Assembly (NCBI GenBank): GCA_033558025.1
Contig: JAUCEF010000007.1
Location: 3,038,001 to 3,102,000, forward strand
DNA: 64,000 nt
Reading direction: 5' to 3'
Source of the DNA: Phytophthora sp. 'mugwort'
Taxonomy: Eukaryota; Oomycota; Peronosporomycetes; Peronosporales; Peronosporaceae
In this document: piece by piece, positions 39,348 through 59,234 of the stretch
How the letters are laid out: each line of letters starts with the position of its first letter
Numbering within the stretch: the stretch's first letter is position 1
Notes under the pieces: model-generated
Databases searched by the model: none
What the model saw: the letters and a program-made list of their open reading frames with translations, nothing else
What the model was told of the DNA's origin: nothing
Program-made: the position numbers and the translations under genes

Positions 39348-40838
39348 ATGGGCAAGTGCGGCCAGAAATTCCTCACACTCGAGGACCTCAAGATGGCCTT
39401 TAACGTCTTCTGCTGCGTCTACGGTGTTGGAACGCTTGGTATGCCCGGTAACTTTTCACGTGCCGGGCCTGTGCTCGCCGCCATCGCCATGCTCTTTATG
39501 GCCTTCGCTAACGTCTACGCGTCCGTGGCCATTTGCCGCGTCATGCTGCTCGCCCCCAAGTCTGTCAAGACGTACGGCGACCTAGGCGCCTGGGCCGCCG
39601 GCAAGTGGGGCCAGTGGTTTGCAGTGGTGGCTCAGATGGCGTCGTGTCTACTCGTGCCTTGCGTGTTCCTCGTGTTGGGCGGCTCGCTGCTCGACGGCCT
39701 TTTCCCGGATGCCTTCAGTCAATCTGTCTGGATCATTTTCATGGCGCTCATGTGTCTGCCGGTCTGCCTCATTCCAACTCTGAAGGAAGGTGCCGGGGCT
39801 GCATTCGCTGGCTGTGCCGGTACCGTCATCGCCGATATCATCGGCGTGTCGGTTGTGATGTACGGCATGCGCGGCCACCCGTCCGTGCCGGCGCCTGATC
39901 TCAAGTTCTCGCAGGTGGCCGGCGTGTTCGGCAACCTGTCACTCGCGTACGGCGCCGGCGTCGTCATCCCGGCCCTCCAACGCCAGCACAGTGAGCCCAA
40001 GCGCATGCCGCGCGTCGTCTTCTTCACCATTACGCTGATCTCGTGCCTGTTCCTGGTCCTAGCCAGTACGGCCTACTCGGCTGTGGGCTGCCAGATCTCG
40101 GGCAACTTGCTGTTCACGATCTACCCAGACGCCGGCATGGGCATGACCGCGCTGGGCTTCAAGTCCGACTGGGGTGCTGTTGTCCTGGCCTATCTGTTCA
40201 TGCAGCTTCACATCACCATCGCCTTTTCAGTTCTGTTGAATCCCGTGTTCTACCTATCCGAGCGTCTTGCGCTTGGTATGCACAAGAAGATACAGAGCGA
40301 CGTTGAGAGCGGTCTCACTTACGCCGACATGGGGACTCCCGCCAAAGAGTTCAACGCGAACCCCTCCGTCAACACCGCGTCGGATCGCCGTTCGGGCATG
40401 TCGTACATCTCAGTCGCTGACGCTGAGAACCCGCACTATGGCGATGCTGAGGCTGAAGCCGCGGAGTACCGCGGCTCCAACGTCATCAAGTACGTGCTGC
40501 TACGCGTGGCCATCATTATCGTACTGGTGATCCTGTCTATTGTGTTGAAGGACCACTTCTCAGACCTGTCGGACTTTGTGGGAGCTTCGTGTATTTCGCT
40601 CAATAGTATCATCCTGCCGATCGTGTTCCTGCTCAAGAAGTGCTGGAACACCATTCCGATGTATGAGAAGATTCCTGCCCTGATTGTCGCGGTGGTGTGT
40701 ACCTTCCTGGGATGCTACGTGACGTACACGTCCGGCAAGACCCTGTTCGCCCCGACGGATTCGGATACGTCGTTCCCGTACTGCGACTCGGAGTACGAGA
40801 ACACGGTGTACTACAACTATACCGCCGTGCACGGATAA
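39348..40838 (+). CDS. Amino-acid transporter, AAAP family
   Basis: 496 aa, intronless, ATG at 39348 in good context. It has the amino acid/auxin permease (Aa_trans) pattern: an N-terminal cytoplasmic TLEDLKMAFNVFCCVYGVGT followed by LGMPGNFSRAG, the conserved glycine-rich start of TM1, then about eleven hydrophobic segments (for example VLAAIAMLFMAFANVYASVA, FTITLISCLFLVLASTAYSA, VAIIIVLVILSIVLK). A hydrophilic loop of about 85 residues at 315-395 is rich in Ser, Asp and Ala. The family moves neutral or cationic amino acids by proton symport across plasma or vacuolar membranes; substrate cannot be told here. A degraded 3' copy lies upstream at 38443-38731, so the locus once had tandem copies. 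Confidence 0.92.
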   Translation: MGKCGQKFLTLEDLKMAFNVFCCVYGVGTLGMPGNFSRAGPVLAAIAMLFMAFANVYASVAICRVMLLAPKSVKTYGDLGAWAAGKWGQWFAVVAQMASCLLVPCVFLVLGGSLLDGLFPDAFSQSVWIIFMALMCLPVCLIPTLKEGAGAAFAGCAGTVIADIIGVSVVMYGMRGHPSVPAPDLKFSQVAGVFGNLSLAYGAGVVIPALQRQHSEPKRMPRVVFFTITLISCLFLVLASTAYSAVGCQISGNLLFTIYPDAGMGMTALGFKSDWGAVVLAYLFMQLHITIAFSVLLNPVFYLSERLALGMHKKIQSDVESGLTYADMGTPAKEFNANPSVNTASDRRSGMSYISVADAENPHYGDAEAEAAEYRGSNVIKYVLLRVAIIIVLVILSIVLKDHFSDLSDFVGASCISLNSIILPIVFLLKKCWNTIPMYEKIPALIVAVVCTFLGCYVTYTSGKTLFAPTDSDTSFPYCDSEYENTVYYNYTAVHG

Positions 40839-43004: not shown

Positions 43005-45089
43005 ATGGCAGGCGGATCGCTGTTTCAAGTCGGCAAAACCGTCGAGTTTTGGCGCATGCTCTTTCACTTGAGTATCCTGGCCTTCTGTCTGGTCATCTTC
43101 GAGGCCGCTCTCCACCACGTGGAACACAAACTCTCTCGATATGACAAGTATCAGCACATGCTCCGTAAAGCGTATCGAGAACTCATGATTCTAGGTCTTT
43201 TGAGTCTCGGACTCAAGCTGCTCAAGGAAGTGCCAGGTATCTACGCAGACAGCAAGACGATGCTAGCGTTCCAGGTAGCCGACCTGACCATCTTCATCCT
43301 GGCACTCGCTCTCATTCTCCAAGCGATCATCGTCTTCTCGCAATTACGGAAACACAACAAGGTAGCCGATCGAACCGAGCTGATCACAGCGCAAGACCTG
43401 GTTGATGCTGTCAGTCCGCCGGCTGGTACACCACCCACAGCAGCTCAGTCGCAAGCTAGCTCCTCCAAATGGCCCTGCTGGTCGAGTAAGACACGTGCGG
43501 GATTCGAGAAGGAGGTAATACAGCGTCGATTACTTCGTCATTTATTCCTCCGGCGCTTTGGACTGCCGCAGCTCTTTCCGTTCTCCAAGTACCTTCGTCG
43601 GGCCCAAGCCAACCAGATCTCACACATGATCGAAGTGGAGCCTTCCATGTGGTTACTTCTGCTCTTCGTGGCATGGCTCATTTGTGGCGTAGTTAGCCTC
43701 CTGGAACACTACGACGTGGATCTCCCGGAGAGTCAAGAGCTAGTGGAAGTTTTTGTTGCGTTTGCATGGAGCCTCGTGATGCTTCATATTGGTGTACTGC
43801 TGTGCTTCCGCTCGTGCTTGCACCGAATCTTGACGATAGCAGGCTACAGTGACAACGAGGCCATTTTAGCAACAAATCTCCGAGATATTACTCACGAGGA
43901 GTCTGTCGCTTGGCGTAACGAAGCAGCGGACAATGCCCTTGATACCATGAACCGTGTACAAGAAGAACTGGAAGAGATTGAACACCGCCGAAATGCTGGA
44001 CGTCACGAGGTCCTCCGAAAAGACATCGGGCTTCAGCTCGCAGTAACTTGCTGCCGTCATATTAAGCTGCCTACCAAGCTACGAGAACAAAGCGGTGTGC
44101 AGCCTGACGCGCCACGAATCCACCTCCCTCTCTTCTCACGAAAGATGTGGCATGTCGTCGTCATGTTCCTCCTGCTCCTCAACGGCTTCTTCATCGCTCT
44201 TCTCGTGCAGTGCGCTGTGTACGACCTAGGCGAGATTTACGGCGAGTTCGGATTGGTCCCCGCTCTCATGGTGCCGCTCCCGCTAGTGCTCAACACGTTC
44301 GTGTTCCAGCAGCGCATCTTTCGGTACTTTGTGCTTGTCTGCAGTGTTTTGCGTGTAGACGCCCACACTTTAGGGGAAGTGATGAACCACTTCAGTGAGA
44401 TTGTCGAGCTGCGGTCCGAGTTCGCAGTCTCTTTGCTTGACTGTTTGAAGGCGGACGGCTCGACGGTCGTCGAATTACGCGCTGAATTGCACGCTCACGA
44501 TTTGCAGCAAACTGGGATGATGGATGTGGATAAGCTTCGCAACATTCTAGCATCTTTTGGCTATCGATTGACAAGGTTTCGCTTCAATAGTGTGGCTATG
44601 CTGCTATTTGAGCTGAGCGGGACTCGAGTCGAGTACGGACAGCTACTCCGTCTACTTGTGCTTGCCCAGCACGAACCGTTAAGCGAAAGCGGACCAGTCA
44701 ATTTCCGACGCCAGCATCCGTTGCTGCAACGGAGCACGATGTCGTTCGAGGAAGGCGTTCAGACCAGCTTACGCATGACTCGGTTGAGTGTACTAACGTC
44801 GCGTCAGGTGCCTCTGCTGTCACAACCGAGCATCGGGTCGGAGCCCAGACCGAGCGACTTTATGCATGTTGGTTTACCGCCAGTGCGGCGAGGTTCAGTC
44901 GACAGGATATCCGATACCCACTCAAGAAACACCAATCGTCGCGGGCGACACCCCACGTTGGAGCGGAGCTATACCCATCAGTTTGCTGGATCCACCTCTC
45001 GAGCACTGCACGGCATGTACAACATCCGTAGGGCGTCCGAGTCGCGTATGACGTCTGTACCCCCCGACACGGTGTACACCGTGCTGTAA
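43005..45089 (+). CDS. MLO-like seven-TM protein with EF-hand-like domain, array gene 1
   Basis: 694 aa, intronless. Seven hydrophobic segments lie at about 18-37, 58-74, 88-111, 214-234, 247-268, 381-405 and 415-434. Two blocks resemble the plant MLO family: the amphipathic helix into TM2 (LRKAYRELMILGLLSLGLKL, compare ELMLLGFISLLL in MLO) and FSKYLRRAQANQISHMIEVE before TM4 (like MLO F.KY..R..E.DF). A long soluble loop at 270-380 is predicted helical. After TM7 comes a segment with a degenerate EF-hand loop (D499-L-Q-Q-T-G-M-M-D-V-D-K, position 12 Lys instead of Glu). The tail ends with LERSYTHQFAGSTSRALHGM. MLO proteins sit in the plasma membrane and act in calcium-linked signalling; function here is inferred. 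Residues from about 21 to 216 are encoded by DNA nearly identical to gene 2. Confidence 0.75.
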   Translation: MAGGSLFQVGKTVEFWRMLFHLSILAFCLVIFEAALHHVEHKLSRYDKYQHMLRKAYRELMILGLLSLGLKLLKEVPGIYADSKTMLAFQVADLTIFILALALILQAIIVFSQLRKHNKVADRTELITAQDLVDAVSPPAGTPPTAAQSQASSSKWPCWSSKTRAGFEKEVIQRRLLRHLFLRRFGLPQLFPFSKYLRRAQANQISHMIEVEPSMWLLLLFVAWLICGVVSLLEHYDVDLPESQELVEVFVAFAWSLVMLHIGVLLCFRSCLHRILTIAGYSDNEAILATNLRDITHEESVAWRNEAADNALDTMNRVQEELEEIEHRRNAGRHEVLRKDIGLQLAVTCCRHIKLPTKLREQSGVQPDAPRIHLPLFSRKMWHVVVMFLLLLNGFFIALLVQCAVYDLGEIYGEFGLVPALMVPLPLVLNTFVFQQRIFRYFVLVCSVLRVDAHTLGEVMNHFSEIVELRSEFAVSLLDCLKADGSTVVELRAELHAHDLQQTGMMDVDKLRNILASFGYRLTRFRFNSVAMLLFELSGTRVEYGQLLRLLVLAQHEPLSESGPVNFRRQHPLLQRSTMSFEEGVQTSLRMTRLSVLTSRQVPLLSQPSIGSEPRPSDFMHVGLPPVRRGSVDRISDTHSRNTNRRGRHPTLERSYTHQFAGSTSRALHGMYNIRRASESRMTSVPPDTVYTVL
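43065..43652. repeat. Gene-conversion tract, copy 1
   Basis: 588 bp matching 45814-46401 with three substitutions. Both flanks diverge sharply. Confidence 0.9.
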
Positions 45090-45753
45090 GGCTGGCTACT
45101 GTAGTGATCTATATGTGTAAAATACAGTGCGTGTTGAACAGCCAGTTGCCAGCATGTGAAGCCACCTCGGATCTGCTGTCATGCGGTACGGCGTTGAATT
45201 GTACTGTGGTTTTGGTTGGTTGCAGCAGTCGCTTCGTACCACCGGTACGGTATCGGTACACCTGGAGACAACTTCGGAAACTTCAGACAGCAAAGCGCAG
45301 GATCGGGAAATAACTGTCTTTCCACTAGCGATCGCATGAAGTCGCCATGCCGTCAGTGCGCTAAAAATCTCCGAATATCTCGCTGTGGAAATTTATCCCG
45401 TGCGAGTATAGGCGATGAAGTTTGTCTATAGTAGAAGCTACATGTACTACATGTACACATTTGCACCATGGCTGTGATTCTTACGAACGTGAGCTAGGGT
45501 GGTGGAATCAGCTGTCGGTAGGCATCACACGAGAGTTGCGAGAAGCTGTCGTCACTCCGACTCCGAGTCCAAGGATAAAGAAGCCTGTCTTCACCCTGGA
45601 CCTGTGGCTACCTGCCACGGACAAACGCGCGTGTTGACAGTCCATAATCCGTCAGATGCAACGAACGCTTCCAGTTTTATAGTTGATACTTAAGTAGTAA
45701 ACAATGTCGACGCGAAAGCCCGGACAGGACGGTCTCACTTTACAACGTACGTC
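45090..45753. promoter_or_regulatory. Spacer and promoter between array genes 1 and 2
   Basis: No gene. An Inr-like TCACTTTACA lies at 45735-45744, exactly 19 nt before the ATG as in gene 1. Upstream, 45578-45622 resembles the flank of gene 1. Confidence 0.6.
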
Positions 45754-47844
45754 ATGGGGGGTGGGTCGCTGTTTCAAGTCGGTGAAGCCGTCGAGTTTTG
45801 GCGCGTGCTTATTCACTTGAGTATCCTGGCCTTCTGTCTGGTCATCTTCGAGGCCGCTCTCCACCACGTGGAACACAAACTCTCTCGATATGACAAGTAT
45901 CAGCACATGCTCCGTAAAGCGTATCGAGAACTCATGATTCTAGGTCTTTTGAGTCTCGGACTCAAGCTGCTCAAGGAAGTGCCAGGTATCTACGCAGACA
46001 GCAAGACGATGCTAGCGTTCCAGGTAGCCGACCTGACCATCTTCATCCTGGCACTCGCTCTCATTCTCCAAGCGATCGTCGTCTTCTCGCAATTACGGAA
46101 ACACAACAAGGTAGCCGATCGAACCGAGCTGATCACAGCGCAAGACCTGGTTGATGCTGTCAGTCCGCCGGCTGGTACACCACCCACAGCAGCTCAGTCG
46201 CAAGCTAGCTCCTCCAAATGGCCCTGCTGGTCGAGTAAGACACGTGCGGGATTCGAGAAGGAGGTAGTACAGCGTCGATTACTTCGTCATTTATTCCTCC
46301 GGCGCTTTGGACTGCCGCAGCTCTTTCCGTTCTCCAAGTACCTTCGTCGGGCCCAAGCCAACCAGATCTCGCACATGATCGAAGTGGAGCCTTCCATGTG
46401 GGTGCTTTTACTCGCTGTAGCCTGGGGAATCTGTGGCGTGTTGGGCAGTCTTGACGACCTGGACATTGAGCTCCCGGAGGGCCACGAACTTGTCGAGGTT
46501 TTCGTCGTATTTGCCTGGGGCCTCGTGGGGATTCACATGGCCGTGCTGCTCTACTTCCGTTCCTGCGTGCGTCAGCTTCTGGTTGCTGCAGGCTACAGCG
46601 ATGACGACGTCACGCTGATCGAAACCCTTCGAGTCATCGCTGGAGAGGAAGCTAGAGCGTGGCGCAACGAAGCAGCAGACAACGCCCTTGATACCATGAA
46701 CCGTGTCCAAGAAGAACTAGAAGAGATCGAGGACCACCGAAATGCTCAGCGCCACGTGCTACTCCGGAAAGACATCGGACTACAGCTTATGGCAACTTGC
46801 TGCCGTCATATTAACCACATTGGCGACCCCAAGCCACGCACCGGCCGCGCACCGACTGGAGTGCAGACCGGGACCCCGACGATTCACATCCGATTCTTTT
46901 CACGGAAAGCCTGGCACGTCGCTGTCATGTTCTTGCTGATCCTCAATGGTTTTTTCATTGCTCTACTCGTGCAATGTGCCGTGTACGACTTGGACGACAT
47001 TTACGACGAGTATGGGCTGGCCCCGGCTCTCATGGTCCCGCTCCCGCTGGTTTTAAACACTTTCGTGATCCAGCAGCGGATGTTCCGTTATTTCGTCATC
47101 GTCTGCAGTATCCTCCGCGTGGACGCCAACACGCTGGGTGAAGTGGTCAACCATTTCAGTGAGATTGTGGAGCTGCGGTCAGAGTTCGCGACCTCGTTAC
47201 TCGACTGTCTGAAGGAAGGGGAGTATACACTGGTCGACTTGCGTCGGGAACTTCAAACGTACGATCCTCGACAGACTGGGATGGTCGACGTGGACAAACT
47301 GCGCGCGGTGCTGACTGCGTTTGGCTTTCGCTTGACGCGGTTCCGCTTTAACAGCGTCGCAATGATGCTGTTTGAGCTCAGTGGGACCAAAGTCGCGTAT
47401 GGTCAATTACTTCGGCTCTTGACGCTCGCGCAACAAGACGCATCGAGCGAAAACGCGTCAACCGGTCAGCGACGCCAGCACCCGCTGTTGCAACGGAGTC
47501 AGACGTCGCTCGACGAGGCGAGTGTGCGCGCGAATCCAACGACAGGACTCGTCTCACGTCAAATGCCTTTGCTCTCTCAACCAAGTTTTGGCTCCGAGCC
47601 CCGATCCAGCGACTTTGTGAATACACCAGCTTTGCGTCGACTTTCCGTTGCCAGGATGTCCGACAGTCAGCCGATCGCGAAAACGGACAACAACCGCGGA
47701 CGGGCTCCGATACTGGAACGCACATACACCCACCAGTTTGCTGGCTCAAGCTCTCGAGCGCTCCATGACATGTACAACATCTGTCGGGACTCTGACTCGC
47801 AAATGGATAACGTCCCGTCCGACACCGTGTACACCGTCCTGTGA
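45754..47844 (+). CDS. MLO-like seven-TM protein with EF-hand-like domain, array gene 2
   Basis: 696 aa, intronless, same plan as gene 1. TM1-TM3 and the loop up to TM4 are almost identical to gene 1, because 45814-46401 matches 43065-43652 at 585 of 588 positions. From TM4 onward the two differ at many residues. The loop between TM5 and TM6 carries a Gly/Pro-rich insert (HIGDPKPRTGRAPTGVQTG). The EF-hand-like loop DPRQTGMVDVDK again lacks the position-12 Glu. The tail LERTYTHQFAGSSSRALHDM matches the array motif. It is followed by a 568-bp spacer and gene 3 in the same direction, so each gene is probably transcribed from its own start. Confidence 0.75.
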   Translation: MGGGSLFQVGEAVEFWRVLIHLSILAFCLVIFEAALHHVEHKLSRYDKYQHMLRKAYRELMILGLLSLGLKLLKEVPGIYADSKTMLAFQVADLTIFILALALILQAIVVFSQLRKHNKVADRTELITAQDLVDAVSPPAGTPPTAAQSQASSSKWPCWSSKTRAGFEKEVVQRRLLRHLFLRRFGLPQLFPFSKYLRRAQANQISHMIEVEPSMWVLLLAVAWGICGVLGSLDDLDIELPEGHELVEVFVVFAWGLVGIHMAVLLYFRSCVRQLLVAAGYSDDDVTLIETLRVIAGEEARAWRNEAADNALDTMNRVQEELEEIEDHRNAQRHVLLRKDIGLQLMATCCRHINHIGDPKPRTGRAPTGVQTGTPTIHIRFFSRKAWHVAVMFLLILNGFFIALLVQCAVYDLDDIYDEYGLAPALMVPLPLVLNTFVIQQRMFRYFVIVCSILRVDANTLGEVVNHFSEIVELRSEFATSLLDCLKEGEYTLVDLRRELQTYDPRQTGMVDVDKLRAVLTAFGFRLTRFRFNSVAMMLFELSGTKVAYGQLLRLLTLAQQDASSENASTGQRRQHPLLQRSQTSLDEASVRANPTTGLVSRQMPLLSQPSFGSEPRSSDFVNTPALRRLSVARMSDSQPIAKTDNNRGRAPILERTYTHQFAGSSSRALHDMYNICRDSDSQMDNVPSDTVYTVL
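45814..46401. repeat. Gene-conversion tract, copy 2
   Basis: Counterpart of 43065-43652 at a constant offset of 2749 bp. Differences are at A/G positions in ATCATCGTC/ATCGTCGTC, GTAATAC/GTAGTAC and TCACAC/TCGCAC. Confidence 0.9.
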
Positions 47845-48412
47845 GGCTAGCTAGAACAGAAAACGCTGATATAAAGCCTAGTCTTTTAGTCATACTAACG
47901 TCATATGGGATAGTCTCAATGCTGCACGGAAGCTATACGAACCACTTCGATGAACAACATCTCGGATGTCGCTCATTCCCACGAAGGATTCGGCTTTCCG
48001 ACGACACTGCAACAGTGTAAGAAGAAGGGAAGGAAGACGTTTCCCAATGTCAGAGGTGAAGACTGCGGTGCGCTCTATACCGGTAGGGTAGATTGTCAAC
48101 CGAACGTTCAAACGGTGCTCGCTCGTGTCATTTCAGTCCCCCGGTGGTGAATCACAGGTCCTGTCGCGCGTACGCGATAATGCTACCGTAGGTTAAGCCT
48201 TTCCCTTGAAAACATAGCAACCCGTTTAACATTATGTACCCCGGTGCATTCCTCTTCAAATTACTGAAGAGTCTGGACATTGTGTACTCGTAGGTCACGC
48301 GAAATTGAAACGGGTTTCCACGAACGTTGGCAAAGTTTTCTATATGATACTTCTACTCAGCATGGGCTCAAGATCTCAGACAGACTTAGCGATTTATTCC
48401 TCAACAAGCTAG
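47845..48412. promoter_or_regulatory. Spacer and promoter between array genes 2 and 3
   Basis: No gene. At the -19 position an Inr-like TTATTCCTCA (48394-48403) replaces the stronger TCACT motif of genes 1 and 2. Confidence 0.45.
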
Positions 48413-50461
48413 ATGGCAGGCGCGTCTCTCTTCCAAGTGGGCCACAATGTGGAATTCTGGCGGGTGCTGGTTCATTTGAGTCTCTTGGCTGCGTGTCTAC
48501 TGGGCTTCGAGTGTGTGCTCCACTACGTCGAGCACCATCTCGCGCGATATGACAAATATTATCACATGCTCCAGAAGGTGTACAGGGAGTTAATGGTCCT
48601 CGGTTTGCTCAGTCTTGTGCTGAAAATACTCAAAGAAGTCGCACCGATCGACAGCGAGAGCCGTCCGATGCTCGCTTTCCAGGTCGCCGATCTCATCATC
48701 TTTGGTTTCGCGCTTGCGCTCGTGCTCCAAGCGTTGTGTATTTTCCATCAAGTCCGGAAGCATAGTCGACGTGTATATCAAGCCGAGTTGATCACGACGC
48801 GAGACGTCGTCGTAGAGCTGAACAAACACGACAACAACTTGCTCAGAGCCTGGCCACCAAAGCCAACGTGTTGCTCACACTGTAGTGAGAAACCAGCACT
48901 AGCAACCAAAGACATCGTGAGGTATCGACTATTGCGGCACCTTTTCCTTCGTCGGTTTGGACTGCCGCAGCTTTTCCCGTTTGCCAAGTACATGAGACGT
49001 GCCCAGGCGAGTCAAATCACTCACATGATCCAAGTGGAACCGTCGATGTGGCTGCTGGTTCTTCTTGTGGCATGGGGAATCTGTGGCCTAGCGACGGTTC
49101 TTGAGAGCGTCAAGCTCGTTAAACTGCTCGTGATCTTTGCGTGGTCATTGGTGCTGATTCACTGCCTCGTGCTGCTTTACCTGCGCACGTGTGTGCATCA
49201 ACTCCTGGAGGTCGCGGGCTACAGCGAAGACAGCCACGTATTGTACGCGAACCTCGCGTCCCTAGCAGAAGAAGAAAGTGGTGCCTGGGAGAATGAGACG
49301 GCGGAGATTGCATTGGACGCGATGCACAGAGTCCATGAAGTGCAGGAAGAGAGTGAACACGAACGGAAGACAACACGTCGAGGCTTCCTACAGAGCGACG
49401 CCGGTATTCAGCTTGTTGCCTCGTTATGTGGCAAACTCTGCGGCTCCAGCAGGTCAAAGCGAACCTCTAAAAAAAACCAATACGAGTCGGATCCTTCCCG
49501 AACGAGCGTCTGCCTTCGCTTCTTCTCGTCCGAGGCCTGGCACGTTGTCGTGATCCTGTTGCTGACGTTGAATGGATTCTTCGTCGCGTTATTTGTACAG
49601 TGCGCTTTGTACAACTTGGACGAGATCTACGAGGCGCTCGGGTTGGTTGTTGCAGTCACGGTTCCACTTCCAATGGTCGTGAATACGCTGTTATTGCAGC
49701 CATTTATTTTCAGGGACTTTACACTAGTGTGTAGTGTCCTTCACCTTGAGGCCTCGACGCTGGGCGACGTCACCACCCACTTTATCGAGACTATCGAGCT
49801 CCAATCTCAATTCGCAGTCTCGGTGCTCCAGTGCTTGAAGGACGGAGGACTCACAATCGGATATCTGGAGACTGTCGTTCGCTCTCACGACCTCAAGAGC
49901 TCTGGCATTATCGAGATCGACAGTCTTCGCGCCATCCTGGCCTCAGTCGGGTTCAGCTTAACGCGATTCCGGTTCAACAGTGTCGTCAATTTATTGTTTG
50001 ATCTCAAGAGGGCGAGCGTGGAGTACGTCCAGCTTTTCCAACTTCTCGCCCTCGTCCAGCAAGATCACGAGGGAAGTGACGGACGCTCAACCTTTCAAGA
50101 ATTTCCTCGCGGGTCGGCGTCATTTGAAGACAAAGCGAGCACGCACTCGATTTCTGCAGTTGACTTGAGCTCGATTCAGCACTTCGCTTTCACAGCGCAG
50201 TCGAGTGTCGCGTATGACCTTGCGAACAACGACTTTGCGTTTCTAAGGACTGTGTCACCAACGCTGCGTCGAGTGTCGACCCTGGGGCGACGCGATCAGT
50301 TGCTAGTGTCAAAGGACGACAATCTCATGCGTAGATCAATGCTACAGCGGAGCTACACGAATCAAATCACGGGCTCAAGCTCGCGAGCGCTTCATTACAT
50401 GTACAACATCCGAGAACTAGCTCGCTTTCAAGAAGATTTCAAAGAGACCACCATGGTGTAA
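48413..50461 (+). CDS. MLO-like seven-TM protein with EF-hand-like domain, array gene 3
   Basis: 682 aa, intronless. Most diverged intact member but same topology: ASLFQVGHNVEFWRVLVHLS at the N-terminus, LQKVYRELMVLGLLSLVLKI into TM2, FAKYMRRAQASQITHMIQVE before TM4, and TM6 (AWHVVVILLLTLNGFFVALF). The loop after TM3 has its own cysteine cluster (PTCCSHCSEK). The EF-hand-like loop reads DLKSSGIIEIDS, again without a canonical position 12. The C-terminal tail motif LQRSYTNQITGSSSRALHYM is kept although the preceding Ser-rich region is not, which argues that the motif is functional. Gene 3 has no conversion tract with genes 1 and 2. Confidence 0.75.
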   Translation: MAGASLFQVGHNVEFWRVLVHLSLLAACLLGFECVLHYVEHHLARYDKYYHMLQKVYRELMVLGLLSLVLKILKEVAPIDSESRPMLAFQVADLIIFGFALALVLQALCIFHQVRKHSRRVYQAELITTRDVVVELNKHDNNLLRAWPPKPTCCSHCSEKPALATKDIVRYRLLRHLFLRRFGLPQLFPFAKYMRRAQASQITHMIQVEPSMWLLVLLVAWGICGLATVLESVKLVKLLVIFAWSLVLIHCLVLLYLRTCVHQLLEVAGYSEDSHVLYANLASLAEEESGAWENETAEIALDAMHRVHEVQEESEHERKTTRRGFLQSDAGIQLVASLCGKLCGSSRSKRTSKKNQYESDPSRTSVCLRFFSSEAWHVVVILLLTLNGFFVALFVQCALYNLDEIYEALGLVVAVTVPLPMVVNTLLLQPFIFRDFTLVCSVLHLEASTLGDVTTHFIETIELQSQFAVSVLQCLKDGGLTIGYLETVVRSHDLKSSGIIEIDSLRAILASVGFSLTRFRFNSVVNLLFDLKRASVEYVQLFQLLALVQQDHEGSDGRSTFQEFPRGSASFEDKASTHSISAVDLSSIQHFAFTAQSSVAYDLANNDFAFLRTVSPTLRRVSTLGRRDQLLVSKDDNLMRRSMLQRSYTNQITGSSSRALHYMYNIRELARFQEDFKETTMV

Positions 50462-50536
50462 GTAGGAACGGAAATAAGTGGTATTCATTGATGAAAATAT
50501 GTAGTATTTGCTGGCATCTGTTCACCTGTTGTACGT

Positions 50537-51265
50537 CTAATTGGGAGCAAAGACGTCGAAAAAGTCGTAAAGCACCGCCGCCACTGCGTCTTGTGCTGCA
50601 CATGGCGCTGCATTCTTCGCTTCCTTGTTCTGTCCAAGCGGGGACAGATGCGGTACAAGTTGTACCACTGCAACTCCCTTTTCTTTCGCAATGGAAGCCA
50701 CACGTGGGATCGCCAGGCTCTTCCCAGTAGCGAATGCCACCAACTGAGCAAGATGCATGGCCAACGAAGGTTTACGCAGCACCGTGTCGCCCATCGTAAC
50801 TACTGTCACCATGGGGTCCCTCACCCAGTGGGTACCCAGGTACGTTCGGAGGTCCGAACAGAACGCGCAATTGTCGTCACAACTACGAGTCGATCGATCA
50901 ACGCAGAACACCAGCAACCTGCTGAGTTGATTCACGTCCTGGAACATCATTGCGATCTCGTGAACAGTATTGGGAACGTGATCACGTGGCGCTTTGGCCA
51001 TCAGTGACAACTTCAACGTGATGACGAGCTGGCTCTTCTTGTCTCGCGTGGCGTCCAGCACGACAATGTCGACGAGTCGTTGCAATTGGAGACGACGCTG
51101 GGAAACTTCACCGAGAGAGAGTGGGGACAACAGTGAAGCAGCAAAAGGCGACGAGGCTAATTTCCGTGGTAAAGGAGGCCCCGAGATGTTGCGACACATC
51201 GACAACTTGTTCACGAGACTTCGGACGGGAGAAGGTTGGGACGTGGGACGGCAGGTGCTGGGCAT
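50537..51265 (-). CDS. Uncharacterised protein inside the MLO-like array
   Basis: 242 aa if started at the ATG at 51265; an upstream ATG at 51310 would add 15 residues. The first 50 residues are Ser/Pro/Arg-rich and disordered. The rest looks folded, with alternating hydrophobic strands and helices (LVDIVVLDATRDKKSQLVIT, DVNQLSRLLVFCVDRSTR, DPMVTVVTMGDTVLRK, VGAVVQLV-like strands) and a Cys cluster (CDDNCAFC at about 135-142). I do not recognise a family. It is convergent with gene 3 (75 bp between stops) and divergent from the dead fourth member, so it interrupts the array on the opposite strand. Amino-acid composition and codon use favour a real gene. Confidence 0.65.
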   Translation of the reverse strand: MPSTCRPTSQPSPVRSLVNKLSMCRNISGPPLPRKLASSPFAASLLSPLSLGEVSQRRLQLQRLVDIVVLDATRDKKSQLVITLKLSLMAKAPRDHVPNTVHEIAMMFQDVNQLSRLLVFCVDRSTRSCDDNCAFCSDLRTYLGTHWVRDPMVTVVTMGDTVLRKPSLAMHLAQLVAFATGKSLAIPRVASIAKEKGVAVVQLVPHLSPLGQNKEAKNAAPCAAQDAVAAVLYDFFDVFAPN

Positions 51266-51689
51266 CGTGCTAATTGAAGAATGAGTTTTATGGAACTGAA
51301 GGTGATACATCAGTGCTCGCTCCTCTCAAGGCTTGATATGACGAGCAAGGTGGACCTAATCGGTGGCGACATAATCCATCTGCTGATCCCTTTCACCAAT
51401 GCGATTTCTTGTCAAGACTGCTACCACAAGACGCTCCACAGACAGGTCTCTCGTCGAAACACGCGATATGATGAGCCATCTACATCCCCAGCTCTGGATG
51501 ATTAGCAATGGCTACTGTACTGCTGCCTGCACTGATCAAAAGCATTCCCGTGATGTGCTTGCTGTACCAGTTTAGTGGTTCAAACAGAACAAAACTTTCG
51601 TATCCACTGCGTATTACGCGTGATTGAAGACCCCAATAATGGTCATAAACTGTGTTCAAGTGTTGAGGTCTCGTCTTACTTTCGCGTTT

Positions 51690-53653
51690 ACAATCTGTGT
51701 TCCCAGTGGGCGAGGGCGTCGAGCTGTACCAAGTCGTGGTGCTTTTCAACGCGTTGGCGATCTGTTTGATGGTATTTGAGGCGGCATTGCACCACTTGGA
51801 GCACCGTGTCTTGGTCCACGATGACAAGTATCAGCACATGCTCAAGAAGGTGTACCGTGAACTGATGATCCTGGGATTACTCAGCTTCATCATCAAGATG
51901 CTTACTGAAGTGGGCCGCATCGATGGCTACAGCGGCGCATACTGGCGTTTCAAGTGGCCGATCTCATCATCTTCATCCTGGCGATCACGCTCGTGCTTCA
52001 AGCGATGAACGTGCTGCTACTGCGGCGTGGATACAACCAGCGATCGGATCGAGCAGAGTTGATCACGACCCACGACTTGGTCGAGTCGGAAGACGTAGGC
52101 CGAGACCAGAAGGAGGTCGTGAAGCATCGACTACTAAGGCACCTGTTTCTTCGTCGCTTCGGGCTTCCACAGCACTTCTCGTTCTCCAAGTACCTGCGGC
52201 GAGCGCAGGCGAACAACATCGTGCACATGATTGATGTCGAGCCGTCCATGCGGCTTTTACTGCTAGGAATTGCCTGGGCCTTCTCTGACGTCGTTCGGAT
52301 CCTTGGGGACTATGAAGTGGCAGTGCGGTACGAGCTCATTGAGACGTTAATAGCGTTTGCATGGACGCTGGTGCTGCTTCATGTCCTAGTACAACTCTAC
52401 TTTCGCTTCTGGCGTGAGTGGACTGTTGGTCATCGCTGGATACAGCGAAGACAAGAAGCGCATGCTAGCTGGAAACCTCAGTACGATCGCCCCAGGAAGA
52501 GGCGAATGTGTGGCAACATGAAGCTCCAGAGACGGCGTTAGACGAGATGAACCGGATCCACGCACAACAGGAAGAACTGGAACACGAGCGGAAGGCAGCG
52601 AGGTGGGGCTTGTTTAAGGCCGACGCAGGACTTTATCTGGTTATGGCCTGCTTCCGGAATCTCTCGCGTGTCTTCTGCTGTACGAAGCGCCCAGCTCCTC
52701 GACCGAGCGGCGTACAGCCTGGACGCCCGACATTCGCCTCCGTTTGTTCTCACGAAAGGTGTGGCATGTCGTGGTCGTGTTCCTGACAATTCTGAACGTG
52801 TTCTTCGTTGCGTTGCTCGTCAGGGCGCCGTATACAGAATTGACGAGATCTACGACCAGGTTGGTCTTTTTCCCGTCATTTTGATCCCGCTCCCGTTGAT
52901 CCTGAACGGATTGGTCCTCCAGAAGACCATTTTCCGCGATTTTGTGCTGGTCTGTAGCATCCTTCGCATCGACGCCAGCACGCTAGGAGAGGTAGTTGAT
53001 CATTTTCGAGAGATCGTAGAGCTGCGGTCCGAGTTTGCCACTTGGCTGACCCAATGCCTGAAAGAGGGTGGACACTGATCGTCGACTTGGACACAGCTCT
53101 GCGATCCCACGACGTGCAAAGCGGCTTCATCGATGTGGACAAGCTTCGCACAGTACTGGCTTCATTCGGCTTCCAACTGACTCGGTTCCGGCTTAACAGC
53201 GTCGTAAAGCTGCTGTTTGAGCTTCAAGGAATGACCGTCGAGTAGGCGCAAGTGGTTCAGCTCGTGACTCTGATCCGGATCGAAGACGGGTCGTATCCTG
53301 GTCTCCAGCGGACCATGACCTTGTTTGAAGATGTGGATGGACATGAATGCACGCGGCGTCATTTTCTTGCCGCTTCTTGCCCAGTCCCTAGCACCAGAAC
53401 CAGGGCAAGTGACTTTGTGTACATGAGCGCCAGCACTCCATCGCTAGGACGGCATCTGACGTTCGGGTCGATCACTGATGAAACTATTGGACAGCAACAG
53501 AGCTTGCAGCGTAGCGGTTCGAGTCAGTTCGGTACATCAAGTTCACGAGTACTCCATGGCGTCTACAACTTGCAACTCTATCTTCCACGTGCAGACTCGA
53601 CGTCCGACAACGCCAACTCACTTCGAATGAACACGCAGCAACAAGAGAATTAA
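51690..53653 (+). pseudogene. Dead fourth MLO-like array member
   Basis: The whole MLO-like protein can be followed through shifting plus frames: VFPVGEGVELYQVVVLFNAL (the start codon is gone), KKVYRELMILGLLSFIIKML, shift near 51945, VADLIIFILAITLVLQAMNV, FSKYLRRAQANNIVHMIDVE, shift near 52412, then DEMNRIHAQQEELEHERKAA. Shifts near 52735 and 52825 precede IPLPLILNGLVLQKTIFRDF. A shift near 53070 precedes DVQSGFIDVDKLRTVLASFG, then a TAG at about 53243 where paralogs have Tyr, and finally LQRSGSSQFGTSSSRVLHGV in the tail. About five frameshifts and one stop over full length mean it decayed in place rather than by truncation. Confidence 0.85.
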
Positions 53654-55009: not shown

Positions 55010-56847
55010 ATGCCGGCGCTGGATTTGAACTCGTCAAGTATGAATGACTTAGAACAGGGCGGACTCCGAACGAACGGGAGCTGGGAGAATATGAAGAAGG
55101 CCGACGGACTCAAGGACCGAGCCAGCACAATGTACAACCTCAAGTACTACGGTAAATATTAGCCACAATTCCAAGAGGTTGACTCGGATCTGACGCTCTC
55201 TTGCTGTGACAGGTGAAGAGCAGAGGCGTCTGTACCAGGAACTCCCATTCCGAGCGCTACCAGGTATGCGAAGCCGGTCTTTTCGGAGCGAACGAGACTT
55301 CCCGCAGCTTCGACCACGGAGTTCCTGGGCCAATCTGTCTCGACTGATCAAAAAGGTTTGACACTGAAGGTCTGTCCGTTCATCTTAACGAAATGCTGAT
55401 GGTTATTGTCATTGTGGTTTGCATTGAGTAGCATGGTGAGAAGGAGGGTTTGCTCGAAGAAGTGGCCTCGGAGCCGGGGTACACGTATCCGTTGTTGGTC
55501 TCGTGCCTTGTGGCCGTCATCAATGCTTTCCAGTACGGCTACAACACGGCTGTGACCGGAGCGATGAATGCCGACGCGGTGTTCCCTGGTCACTCGGACA
55601 TGCTCTGGGCACTGTGTGTCTCGAGCTTCGCAATCGGTGGGCCGATCGGATCGATCACAGGAGGCCAACTAAGCTCTCAAATTGGTCGCAAGAAGACGAT
55701 GTTCGCCAACTCGTGCCTCTTTCTTGTCTCGGGAGCGGTCATGGCGTTTGCGCTCAACATTTACATGGTGATCGCTGGTCGATTCCTCGTGGGTATCGCG
55801 TCGGGTACAGCCACCGTCGTCGTGCCGCTATATCTTGGTGAACTTGCGCCGCCCAGTCTCCGTGGAGCTCTTGGCACAACGTATCAAGTTGCAATGGTGC
55901 TGGGCATTCTGGGCACGGATATCCTGGCATTCGGGTTTGCCGGAGAGAGCGAAAGCTTGTCGCGTCCAGGGTGGCGACTCATGTTTGGCTTTGCTGGGAT
56001 TCTTGGCGTTTTGCAGATTGTGCTCGGTCCGCTGTTGATCGAGAGTCCACGTTGGCTGCTGGACAAAGGCAACTTCAACGAAGCCGACGAGACGCTGCGA
56101 CGTCTGCGCCAGGCGGACGACGTCTTTGACGAACTCGACAGCATTTCCGCTGCAAACGACAATGAGACTGGCGATGTCCAGGGGATTAGCCAAGTTTTAC
56201 GTGACCGAAACATCCGTGTGCTGTTGCTGGTCGCCGTAGTGCTGCAGTTCGCCCAGCAATTGAGCGGTATTAACGCCGTGATGTTCTACGCGAGCTCATT
56301 TTTCGAGAACGCGGGACTGAAGAACCCGCTCGTTGGGATCACGCTTGTCTACATCTTCAACGTCCTGGCCACGATTGTTGCGCTCATGCTGATGGACAGG
56401 GCTGGACGGCGTCCATTATTGCTTTGGTCGGTAGCGGGTATGCTGGTGTCGAGTGGAGTGCTGACCATTGGGCTCTTGGACCTTCTCCCTCTTGCCAGTA
56501 TCTTCAGCGTGGGCGGTGTCATAAGCTTCGTGTGTTTCTTTGAGATCGGACTCGGGCCGATTCCGTGGCTGATCGTTGCCGAAATGTTCCCGCCCAATTC
56601 ACGCACGACGGCTACGTCTATCGCTACGATGGTCAACTGGATGGGGTTATTCATCGTGGGTATTGGCTTCCCCACTTTGCAAGAAATTCTGGGCAACTTT
56701 ATCTTCGTTCCCTTTGCCGTTCTGCTCGCTCTGACCCTCGGATTCTCACTCGAGTTTGTGCCGGAGACCAAGGGCAAGACCGTCGACGAGATCCAACAAG
56801 AATCAACCCGCAGTAGCGTAAAGAGAAGTACTAAATCCAACTTTTAG
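55010..56847 (+). CDS. MFS sugar transporter (SP family), three exons
   Basis: My model has exons 55010-55151, 55213-55355 and 55432-56847, with introns of 61 and 76 nt (GTAAAT...ACAG and GTTTGA...GTAG). It gives 566 aa. The N-terminal 100 residues are a hydrophilic extension (NDLEQGGLRTNG; FRSERDFPQLRPRSSW). Then twelve TM segments with sugar-porter signatures: FQYGYNTAVTGA in TM1, GGQLSSQIGRKK (loop 2-3 G-R-K/R), LYLGELAPPSLRGAL, IESPRWLLDKG, QQLSGINAVMFYAS in TM7, MDRAGRRPLLL, and the terminal VPETKGKT. This family carries hexoses by facilitated diffusion or proton symport at the plasma membrane. The stop is 35 bp from the convergent stop of the multicopper oxidase gene. Confidence 0.9.
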
Positions 56848-56881: not shown

Positions 56882-58918
56882 TTAGTCCCCAGAGATCATA
56901 TCCACGGCGGCAATCATGCCGGCGTCAGAGTGGCCAAGAATGTGACAGTGCGCCGCTACAATGCCCGTATAGTCTTCCGGACGGAAACGGATGGTCACGT
57001 TACCGGGCGTGGGGACGGAGATGACGTCGCGCCAGTCGCCGATCTCATAGTCGACGCCATGGCCATGACTCATGTCTACAATCTGGAATGCGTTCGTATG
57101 CAGGTGGAACGGGTGGTTCTTCAGGGTCACTTCGCCGCTTTCGTCCCTTCTGTTGATGACGACCCACTCCTGTACGCGACCAAGCATCATCGTGCGGATA
57201 CTGGTCCCGTCAAATAGCGCGTGGTTAATGTAGTACGGTTTGTAGTAAAACCCGTCCTTCATCACCGGGTCTCCCATTGTAAACTCAAACTCAAAAGGTA
57301 GCGGATCCATTCCGACACGGTCTTCTGCAGTCAGGTCAAGCAGACTCTTGGACGGCCCGTAAAGCTCTGAAGGCGGAGGTACAACACTTATAAGAGGCTC
57401 ATCCAGTGACTCGCCCTGGACGTGGATGAAAGCCAGAACACCACTGTAAAGATCCGAGTGGCTGCCCATAAAGTCATGCAGCTTAGGGTCCTTTACCGAT
57501 TGAATCGGGCGCATCATTTCAGGGCCACCCTCCGCAATTGGCTCGCAGTTCAACACAAGGTCAACGCGAGAACCAGGCAAGAGGATTACAGTCTCCATCG
57601 GACGCGGATTCGGCATGTACAGACCATCACTAGCGGCCAACATCATGGAGCAGCCGGGCACCTGCACTTCCAATGAGGCAGTGCCACCAGCGTGTAGCAT
57701 TCGGAGCAGAACGTTTTCGTGCGGACGTACTTTGATCTTCGGCAGATATTCTCCATTGACAGAGAAATACTGAGCAATAGGAGGGATCTGAGGCTTCTCC
57801 TCGGATGAGTCCATTTCATCTAGCAGCTCTTTCGACAGCTTGGCGTTCCTGATGGGGCGCTCAGTCTCCTGCACGTCCGGGTAGAGCGCACGAACCTGAG
57901 CTTCAAGCTTCGTCTTGGCAGTGTACGTGAGTTGCATGTCCAGCGTACTCAGCGAAGCCTTAGCAGCATCCGCCAGCGACGTCATCAAGCCCCCACTGAA
58001 CTTAAACTCCTGCAGCACCACGACGTGTTTCTGCTTAATAGCAGCATATTCTGCCGGCACAGTCGCGGGGTCATCTTCGACGACAATGGGGCCCACCATA
58101 CCACCGCCCATCTGTAAGAACACGGAGCCGTGGAAGTGTGGGTGGTAGTGGAACAATCCTCTTGGGTGGTTCAGCGGCACATGCAAGTGCGTATCTGCGC
58201 TCTCTCCTGGAGCGACAATGCGAAACACGTTGTCCTCGGAGCCCGTCGGGTCCACGTGCATGCCGTGGAAGTGCAGGTTGGTGTTGTTGGGCTCATGCAT
58301 CGTATTTGGCGTCCAGTTTCCGGCCACGTTGGGGCCCAAGTTGTTAACCAGGTGAATGTTTAGCACGTCGCCCGGCTTCAAGACCAGCATGGGGCCAGGC
58401 ACGCTGTCCTCGTACGCGCGCGTGTAGAAGGCCACGGGGCCCTTATCCGCGAGCTTCTCGGCGACGGTGATGGTGGTGTTGAGCTCTCCATTAGTCGACA
58501 CTCTCGCCTCGAGCGTCGGGAGCTCAGGAAGCTGCTGTAGCACCTGAGTTAGCAGCTCGTGCCGGGTTGTCGCCGGCTCCGTAGCCGGCGCAGCCGTGCG
58601 AATGCGCTGATCTTTCTCCTGATGAACGTAGGACACAAGCAGCAGCACGACGATGCCCATGCCCACCACGAAGGTGCAGGCCAGGTTGCGGCGTAGTCGC
58701 AGCGTCTGTGTCTGCAGCTGGCGCCCTCCTCTCCGCAGGAACACGTCGCTGTCCTTGGCGTCGTCGTCCTCCTGGTCCTCACGCGACGCCTCTTGATCTT
58801 CCGCGCGCTTGGACTCACAGAACACGCCTGTACCGTAGCTGTTGCTGTTGCGCGGGGAACGGGGCGCTGCCGCGCGCTTGCGACTGCCATCGCCGCCGGT
58901 TGCCGTCGGGACGGCCAT
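56882..58918 (-). CDS. Membrane-anchored multicopper oxidase (laccase-like)
   Basis: 678 aa from the ATG at 58918; the open frame runs on to a GTG at 59008, which I reject as start. Cytoplasmic N-terminus of about 78 residues rich in Arg, Asp and Glu, one TM at about 79-97 (ACTFVVGMGIVVLLLVSYV), then the cupredoxin domains outside. All copper-ligand motifs are present: NLHFHGMHV (HxH at 216-218), FHYHPHFHG (257-264), NHPFHLHTNAF (602-607) and AHCHILGHSDAGM (type-1 Cys at 658, axial Met at 668). An axial Met usually means a lower redox potential than fungal laccases with Leu or Phe. Such enzymes oxidise phenols or metal ions using O2. A CCAAT box (58997 region) and an Inr-like TCACTGCA lie upstream on the minus strand. 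Confidence 0.9.
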   Translation of the reverse strand: MAVPTATGGDGSRKRAAAPRSPRNSNSYGTGVFCESKRAEDQEASREDQEDDDAKDSDVFLRRGGRQLQTQTLRLRRNLACTFVVGMGIVVLLLVSYVHQEKDQRIRTAAPATEPATTRHELLTQVLQQLPELPTLEARVSTNGELNTTITVAEKLADKGPVAFYTRAYEDSVPGPMLVLKPGDVLNIHLVNNLGPNVAGNWTPNTMHEPNNTNLHFHGMHVDPTGSEDNVFRIVAPGESADTHLHVPLNHPRGLFHYHPHFHGSVFLQMGGGMVGPIVVEDDPATVPAEYAAIKQKHVVVLQEFKFSGGLMTSLADAAKASLSTLDMQLTYTAKTKLEAQVRALYPDVQETERPIRNAKLSKELLDEMDSSEEKPQIPPIAQYFSVNGEYLPKIKVRPHENVLLRMLHAGGTASLEVQVPGCSMMLAASDGLYMPNPRPMETVILLPGSRVDLVLNCEPIAEGGPEMMRPIQSVKDPKLHDFMGSHSDLYSGVLAFIHVQGESLDEPLISVVPPPSELYGPSKSLLDLTAEDRVGMDPLPFEFEFTMGDPVMKDGFYYKPYYINHALFDGTSIRTMMLGRVQEWVVINRRDESGEVTLKNHPFHLHTNAFQIVDMSHGHGVDYEIGDWRDVISVPTPGNVTIRFRPEDYTGIVAAHCHILGHSDAGMIAAVDMISGD

Positions 58919-59234
58919 CGATCGGATCAGTGGAATCTTGCAGTGAAAGGCACATGAAAACGTCAGCGAGTAGAGTCGGAAACGGTGAGGTTTGAGCCAA
59001 TCAGACACCCGGATGGATGGGCTAGTATACCGGTTGCAAAACCGGCTACAAGGATAAGGTTGACTTTGTCTCCTGGGTTCAAAATGGCCAACCGCTACGT
59101 CAACAAAATGCGCGCAATGATTTCTGCTTGTTAAATATCAAAATCTCCTGGCAAATTCTTCATAATTCACGTCCAATCTCGTCGCGCGGATGAAAAAGCT
59201 TGGCTTGTCATTTCATCGTCATTTCCGCCTGTTC
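58919..59234. promoter_or_regulatory. Promoter of multicopper oxidase gene
   Basis: 316 bp between the oxidase ATG and the stop of the upstream PX gene. Reading minus, it has GATTGGCTC (CCAAT box) and TTTCACTGCAAG (Inr-like). A short hairpin ACCGGTTGCAAAACCGG-like lies at about 59029-59045. Confidence 0.5.

What the first reader, a model, noticed from the sequence alone, without database searches (positions are those of the whole stretch)
43005..53653. Tandem array of MLO-like seven-TM proteins in an oomycete, with a degenerate EF-hand-like domain
Three intact genes and one dead copy share seven hydrophobic segments, the ELMxLGLLSL helix and the KYLRRAQ block that resemble the plant MLO family, but they add a C-terminal D-x-Q/K-x-T/S-G-x-I/M/V loop typical of EF-hands with position 12 altered. 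MLO proteins are best known as plant susceptibility factors in calcium-linked signalling. An expanded array in a filamentous eukaryote that may itself be a pathogen is worth attention. The MLO assignment rests on pattern recognition by eye.
Basis: partly seen in the sequence, partly recalled or inferred. Interest (0 to 1): 0.75.

Follow-up and report, generated by a model that had tools for sequence, protein, structure and literature searches.

The report
Oomycete MLO-type membrane protein gene array
Three intact genes and one dead copy in a Phytophthora-type water mould encode distant cousins of the plant MLO membrane proteins with a calmodulin-like tail domain; the family is already annotated in related genomes, and what it does there is open.

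Summary
In detail: three intact single-exon genes and a broken fourth copy lie head to tail at 43005-53640. The MLO assignment holds in the broad sense: Pfam Mlo is over its cut-off in copies 2 and 3 (25.6, 29.6 bits against 24), below it in copy 1 (18.8). Seven predicted helices with an N-out/C-in charge pattern fit. Behind helix 7 a family profile and an AlphaFold model place an EF-hand-like pair, where plant MLOs bind calmodulin; no Pfam EF-hand model reaches its cut-off. The family is not new: public records name relatives 'Mlo family' or 'EF-hand domain-containing', and the paralogues predate the Phytophthora species compared. Beyond the finding: (1) a 590-bp gene-conversion tract (3 mismatches) joins copies 1 and 2; (2) the dead copy is a lost orthologue of a fourth paralogue intact in other species; (3) EF-loop position 12 is acidic in 46 of 46 relatives of a second cluster about 60 kb upstream, and in 0 of 72 relatives of this array. 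Most likely mechanism (inferred): MLO-type Ca2+-permeable channels with a built-in calmodulin-like lobe that here lacks canonical Ca2+ ligands.

The parts
43005..45089 (+). copy 1 (g1), 694 aa, MLO-type 7-TM protein with C-terminal EF-hand-like pair and disordered tail
   Evidence: ORF; PF03094 18.8 bits, below the cut-off of 24; AlphaFold model
45754..47844 (+). copy 2 (g2), 696 aa, same architecture
   Evidence: ORF; PF03094 25.6 bits, over the cut-off; 76% identical to copy 1
48413..50461 (+). copy 3 (g3), 682 aa, same architecture, more distant paralogue (49% to copies 1 and 2)
   Evidence: ORF; PF03094 29.6 bits, over the cut-off
51694..53640 (+). dead copy: five homologous pieces in changing frames, one stop inside the last piece, start-codon region not matched (right edge approximate)
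   Evidence: tblastn, stops; best matches are intact genes of other species
43063..43652 (+). gene-conversion tract in copy 1: 587 of 590 bases identical to copy 2; rest of the ungapped first 1065 bases 71.6% identical
   Evidence: segment trees
45812..46401 (+). matching tract in copy 2
44466..44672 (+). EF-hand-like pair of copy 1 (residues 488-556); first loop 44499-44534 with K at position 12; second loop short
   Evidence: family profile
47230..47436 (+). EF-hand-like pair of copy 2, by register with copy 1; first loop 47263-47298 with K at position 12
49856..50062 (+). EF-hand-like pair of copy 3, by register with copy 1; first loop 49889-49924 with S at position 12

Best explanation
The genes encode divergent members of the MLO family (broad sense) of seven-helix membrane proteins. 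Shown here by sequence and prediction: MLO profile match, seven hydrophobic helices with an N-outside/C-inside charge pattern, and a calmodulin-like EF-hand pair fused behind helix 7. Inferred: like the Arabidopsis MLOs that carry Ca2+ in patch clamp, they form Ca2+-permeable channels (or channel regulators) of the oomycete membrane, and the pair acts as a resident calmodulin lobe on the channel's own C-terminus, in place of the calmodulin that plant MLOs recruit. In this array the lobe lacks canonical Ca2+ ligands, so it would be a constitutive, Ca2+-insensitive lobe, while the second cluster upstream keeps an acidic position 12 and may still respond to a metal ion. The array comes from old tandem duplication shared across Phytophthora and is being reworked by gene conversion and loss.
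For: PF03094 over cut-off in g2 and g3, in upstream g5 (28.6) and in 4 of 10 relatives scanned, best 38.5 bits, E 6.1e-10. In g3 the genome search places two collinear blocks, profile 10-71 and 237-310 (the KYMRRAQ block), 24.7 bits with neighbours in the frame. 72 of 120 listed relatives carry PF03094. Profile-profile match of helices 1-2 to a second oomycete MLO class, E 9.6e-5. Net charge over 87 sequences: outer segments -1.4, -0.5, -2.9, -3.8; inner loops +4.2, +6.3, -2.2, the last with 14.8 K/R. Seven long helices and an EF-like pair in the model. EF profile hits in solved structures. Plant MLO1/5/9/15 are Ca2+ channels when activated (PMC9810639, abstract and passages). Low dN/dS outside the tract (g1/g2 0.14 for TM4-TM7, dS 1.5). 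Position-12 split 46/46 vs 0/72.
Against: No functional data for an oomycete member was found; channel activity is carried over from distant plant relatives, and four of those were silent without an activator. g1 is under the Pfam Mlo cut-off, where DUF6020 (19.4, also under its own) scores as high. Outer loops lack conserved cysteines and the loop between helices 2 and 3 is about 11 residues. Hydropathy at the threshold used gives 6 (g5) to 8 (g2, g7) peaks, not always 7. No Pfam EF-hand family is listed for g1-g3. Foldseek gave nothing at E<=0.001. The model is moderate (pLDDT 69.3, pTM 0.68; residues 523-537 of the EF pair under 50). hhalign probability is 58.5 and confined to helices 1-2.
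Confidence: 0.5

Rival explanations
1. MLO-family scaffold, not a channel: the proteins organise membrane domains or vesicle delivery, and the EF-hand-like pair is a docking module for other proteins.
For: The first EF loop keeps fold-forming residues (D1 in 117, G6 in 118 of 120) while positions 3 and 12, Ca2+ ligands in canonical loops, vary, as expected for a docking lobe. Long disordered tail (residues 560-694 under pLDDT 50).
Against: Four Arabidopsis MLOs conduct Ca2+ in patch clamp when activated (PMC9810639). Nothing here tests scaffolding.
Confidence: 0.3
2. Not MLO: an oomycete-specific 7-helix family (or a DUF6020 relative) that resembles MLO only in helices 1-2 and one loop block.
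For: Only short stretches of PF03094 match, copy 1 is below cut-off and DUF6020 gives 19.4 bits there; 5 of 9 relatives with a Mlo match are below cut-off too; hhalign with the other MLO class covers 70 columns; outer-loop cysteines missing.
Against: PF03094 over cut-off in g2, g3, g5 and 4 of 10 relatives, with two collinear blocks in g3; DUF6020 stays below its cut-off wherever it is listed; charge pattern as in MLO; database annotation.
Confidence: 0.1
3. Diversifying surface array: tandem copies and conversion generate variable outer faces, as in antigen or receptor arrays.
For: Tandem copies, gene conversion and a decayed copy.
Against: Outer loops average 11-19 residues; dN/dS 0.10-0.14 in TM4-TM7, though dS there is 1.5 to 4.3, that is near or past saturation; the paralogue lineages persist as orthologues across species.
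Confidence: 0.05

Closest known systems
Land-plant MLO proteins (Pfam PF03094; e.g. Arabidopsis MLO1/5/9/15)
   Same: Profile match, seven helices, N-out/C-in charge pattern, long second and third inner loops, disordered C-terminal tail, link to Ca2+ (plant features partly recalled, partly from passages).
   Different: Short loop between helices 2 and 3, no conserved outer-loop cysteines, no basic stretch behind helix 7, and an EF-hand-like pair after it.
Oomycete MLO class 2 (own genome C6:1251627, L015; 'MLO-like protein' in Pythium oligandrum and Lagenidium)
   Same: PF03094 over cut-off (25.5); shares helices 1-2 with the array (E 9.6e-5).
   Different: One match in this genome (a lower bound) against several array-type copies; also found in Albugo, Achlya and Thraustotheca. 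The array class was seen only in Peronosporales among named rows, but 120 of 140 hits were listed.
Phytophthora 'Mlo family' / 'EF-hand domain-containing protein' records (NCBI, UniRef)
   Same: Same family; g1, g2, g3 each group with named Phytophthora orthologues.
   Different: Nothing in kind; this genome's fourth copy is dead and its copies 1 and 2 share a conversion tract.
Paired EF-hand lobes (calmodulin, ALG-2, EFCAB6, CDPK)
   Same: Profile match (positions about 472-566) and model match (residues about 463-556).
   Different: A single pair, second loop short, first loop without acidic position 12 in the array proteins; no Pfam EF-hand model over cut-off.

Membership tests
MLO family, broad (PF03094) | Pfam profile match over the curated cut-off (24 bits): copies 2 and 3 | tested here: met
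   g2 25.6, g3 29.6; also upstream g5 28.6
MLO family, broad (PF03094) | Pfam profile match over the curated cut-off: copy 1 | tested here: not met
   g1 18.8; upstream g6 23.0 also below, and no Mlo row for g7 (25.2 with neighbouring stretches). g1 is grouped with the others by its 76% identity to g2, not by this test.
MLO family, broad (PF03094) | Seven transmembrane helices, N-terminus outside, C-terminus inside | tested here: met
   By prediction only: seven long helices in the g1 model; charge pattern over 87 sequences. Hydropathy windows after merging overlaps: 7 in g1, g3, g6, 8 in g2 and g7, 6 in g5 where helix 2 is missed.
MLO family, broad (PF03094) | Fold like plant MLO | not testable with these tools
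   No MLO among the rows shown from PDB searches; no library of plant models
MLO family, broad (PF03094) | Ca2+ conductance | not testable with these tools
   Reported for four Arabidopsis members (PMC9810639)
Canonical land-plant MLO subfamily | Conserved cysteines in the extracellular loops (Elliott 2005, title seen in a reference list) | tested here: not met
   0.0 cysteines on average in the N-terminus and all three outer loops of 87 sequences. Not filed in this subfamily.
Canonical land-plant MLO subfamily | Calmodulin-binding site in the proximal C-terminus (passages of PMC8475652) | tested here: inconclusive
   Residues 446-485 average net charge -3.4 with 2.8 K/R; binding itself not tested
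EF-hand pair (fold) | Two helix-loop-helix units joined by a short beta bridge | tested here: met
EF-hand pair (fold) | Pfam EF-hand family over its cut-off | tested here: not met
   None listed for g1-g3 at E<=1; sub-cut-off EF-hand families in 7 of 10 relatives scanned, best 14.1 bits. I therefore call it EF-hand-like.
Canonical Ca2+-binding EF-hand | Acidic position 12 and oxygen ligands at 1, 3, 5 of the loop | tested here: not met
   Position 12 is K, K, S in g1-g3 and acidic in 0 of 72 array-type relatives; 4 of 122 gap-free loops pass all six loose criteria that I set

The most novel reading that the evidence does not exclude
Phytophthora and its kin carry MLO channels with their own calmodulin-like lobe covalently attached, and two linked tandem clusters have set that lobe in opposite ways in all relatives seen: one with an acidic position 12 (metal-responsive), one without (locked). 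If so, the oomycete proteins are a natural experiment on how calmodulin controls MLO.
Probability: 0.25. Interest if true: 0.65.

Novelty: new member of a known kind. Interest (0 to 1): 0.36.

Why it matters
MLO proteins are known mainly as plant susceptibility factors and plant Ca2+ channels. A multi-copy MLO set in an oomycete, with a calmodulin-like lobe built in, gives a way to ask what the ancestral MLO did and how calmodulin controls it. The strict split of EF-loop position 12 between two linked clusters makes that testable with purified domains. As a discovery it is modest, because the family is already annotated.

Tried and rejected
Homologues in viral contigs: 18 stretches matched a pattern, none was confirmed. 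A solved MLO structure: none among the rows shown (8 of 8, 60 of 231, 3 of 3, 50 of 103, 50); Foldseek's best E was 0.77. Transfer from plants: nothing seen supports it, but no tree with plants could be built, since no row of the three protein searches is named as a plant. A recent local burst of duplication: rejected, because g1, g2, g3, g5 and g6 each group with orthologues of other species. The 'Hexose transporter 1' fusion P0094 of P. kernoviae is probably a merged gene model, since a sugar transporter gene (55450-56847) lies near this array.

Literature: Kusch et al. 2016 on the origin of MLO is not held; that it reports MLO-like proteins in Chromalveolata is recalled. Searches listed at most 20 papers each, of 10 to 471 that matched; no listed title or abstract start concerns the function of an oomycete MLO. 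This covers open-licence PMC only, so it does not show that none exists. PMC11345161: MLO passages are chestnut transcripts or references. PMC2705460: no MLO or EF-hand. PMC5322657, RNA-seq of P. infestans stages: 0 occurrences of MLO in the listing and of PITG_11270 in the text, so no expression data were obtained.

Row choices: A1 holds 5 own proteins and 82 of the 120 fetched relatives, chosen by eye to leave out fragments, fused models and some redundant rows; A2 holds 25 of 44; the tree holds 53 of the 120 plus 6 own; the trees hold 19 rows. Searches used all 120.
Full report
What is there. The window is bases 3,038,001-3,102,000 of contig 7 of an 86.26-Mb, 154-contig genome. Three uninterrupted ORFs on the + strand, 43005-45089, 45754-47844 and 48413-50461, encode 694, 696 and 682 aa. 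A fourth copy at about 51694-53640 is broken: homology falls into five pieces in changing frames, with one stop inside the last piece, and matches start at residue 4 or 5 of intact relatives. In the protein search every listed row that names an organism is Phytophthora, Nothophytophthora or a downy mildew (120 of 140 hits listed), so this is a Phytophthora-type oomycete; its species was not determined.

Is it MLO? Pfam PF03094 scores 18.8, 25.6 and 29.6 bits for copies 1-3 against a cut-off of 24. Two of three pass; in copy 1 DUF6020 scores 19.4, also under its own cut-off. Of ten relatives scanned, nine list Mlo and four pass, the best at 38.5 bits, E 6.1e-10; the tenth is a 377-aa piece. The best stretch is helices 1-2; in the genome search the block with KYMRRAQ in copy 3 matches profile positions 237-310, collinear with the first. 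Of the 120 listed relatives, 72 carry PF03094 in the database's column (my count) and two P. infestans records are named 'Mlo family'. A second MLO class lies at C6:1251627 of the same genome (25.5 bits). Its relatives run through Pythium, Lagenidium, Albugo, Achlya and Thraustotheca (44 hits; 47 with a profile). Profile comparison of the two classes gives E 9.6e-5 over 70 columns, helices 1-2 only, probability 58.5.

Topology. Over 87 aligned sequences the N-terminus and the three outer loops are acidic (net -1.4, -0.5, -2.9, -3.8), while the inner loops have 5.1, 15.5 and 14.8 K/R (net +4.2, +6.3, -2.2) (segment limits set by me from the model). This gives N-outside, C-inside, the topology that PMC9229925 describes for MLO (passages). 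Hydropathy windows, after merging overlaps, number 7 in g1, g3 and g6, 8 in g2 and g7, and 6 in g5, where helix 2 falls below the threshold. Conserved outer-loop cysteines are absent, and the loop between helices 2 and 3 is about 11 residues. So it is MLO in the broad sense, not a member of the canonical plant subfamily.

The rest of the family in this genome. The protein search gave 13 matched stretches, a lower bound. Beyond the array they are two genes on the - strand at C7:3,016-3,021 kb (673 and 589 aa), about 60 kb from the array, and one at C11:3.755 Mb. The same two groups show in locus numbers of P. capsici (DVH05_006948/6949 and 006959/6961) and P. oleae (002899/2900 and 002911/2913), each species' rows giving one contig length.

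History. In a 59-row tree g1, g2, g3, g5 and g6 each sit among genes of other Phytophthora species, so the duplications predate those splits. The dead copy is 69-71% identical to P0034, P0041 and P0045 but 39-49% to the copies of its own genome: a lost orthologue of a fourth lineage. Copies 1 and 2 share a tract, 43063-43652 and 45812-46401, with 3 mismatches in 590; the rest of the ungapped first 1065 bases is 71.6% identical. The longest stretch with at most 3 mismatches is 590, against a maximum of 185 in 10,000 codon shuffles. In the tract g1 and g2 pair with 100/96 support; in the rest g2 groups with P. citrophthora, P. infestans and P. idaei genes (100/99) and g1 with another set (100/100). 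This is gene conversion; the donor is not resolved, and an assembly chimaera was not tested. dN/dS for g1/g2 is 0.14 in TM4-TM7 (dS 1.5) and 0.22 in the tail; it could not be computed for the EF region of that pair or for several segments against g3, where dS is saturated.

How it most likely works. Arabidopsis MLO1, 5, 9 and 15 carry Ca2+ currents when co-expressed with an activating kinase, and were silent without it (PMC9810639, abstract and passages). Plant MLOs bind calmodulin in the proximal C-terminus (PMC8475652, passages). Here that stretch is acidic (net -3.4) and leads into an EF-hand-like pair. The simplest mechanism is a Ca2+-permeable channel with a resident calmodulin-like lobe, locked in this array and perhaps still metal-responsive in the upstream cluster. 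The identification is strong; the channel step and the lobe's role are inference.

Verdict. It is a publicly annotated family, so novelty is low; the position-12 split and the covalent lobe give it some interest.

Noticed in passing
43063-43652 and 45812-46401: 590-bp tract with 3 mismatches between copies 1 and 2, flanked by about 72% identity: gene conversion.
   Followed up: yes
G000 C7:3016262-3020579 (L022): Two more family members on the opposite strand about 60 kb upstream, with D at EF-loop position 12.
   Followed up: partly
G000 C6:1251627 (L015): A second MLO class, one match in this genome, with relatives in Pythium, Albugo, Achlya and Thraustotheca.
   Followed up: partly
P0094 (Phytophthora kernoviae): Public protein named Hexose transporter 1 holds an MLO-type piece; it looks like two neighbouring genes merged in annotation.
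   Followed up: no
39348-40838, 55450-56847, 56882-59008: Neighbours: amino-acid transporter (PF01490), sugar transporter (PF00083), multicopper oxidase on the - strand.
   Followed up: no
24722-28189 (-): 1155-aa ORF with a PH domain, two stretches matched.
   Followed up: no
upstream of 43005 and 45754: An initiator-like motif (TCACT...) 19 bases before the start codon in copies 1 and 2, none found in the 200 bases before copy 3; the pattern is recalled.
   Followed up: no
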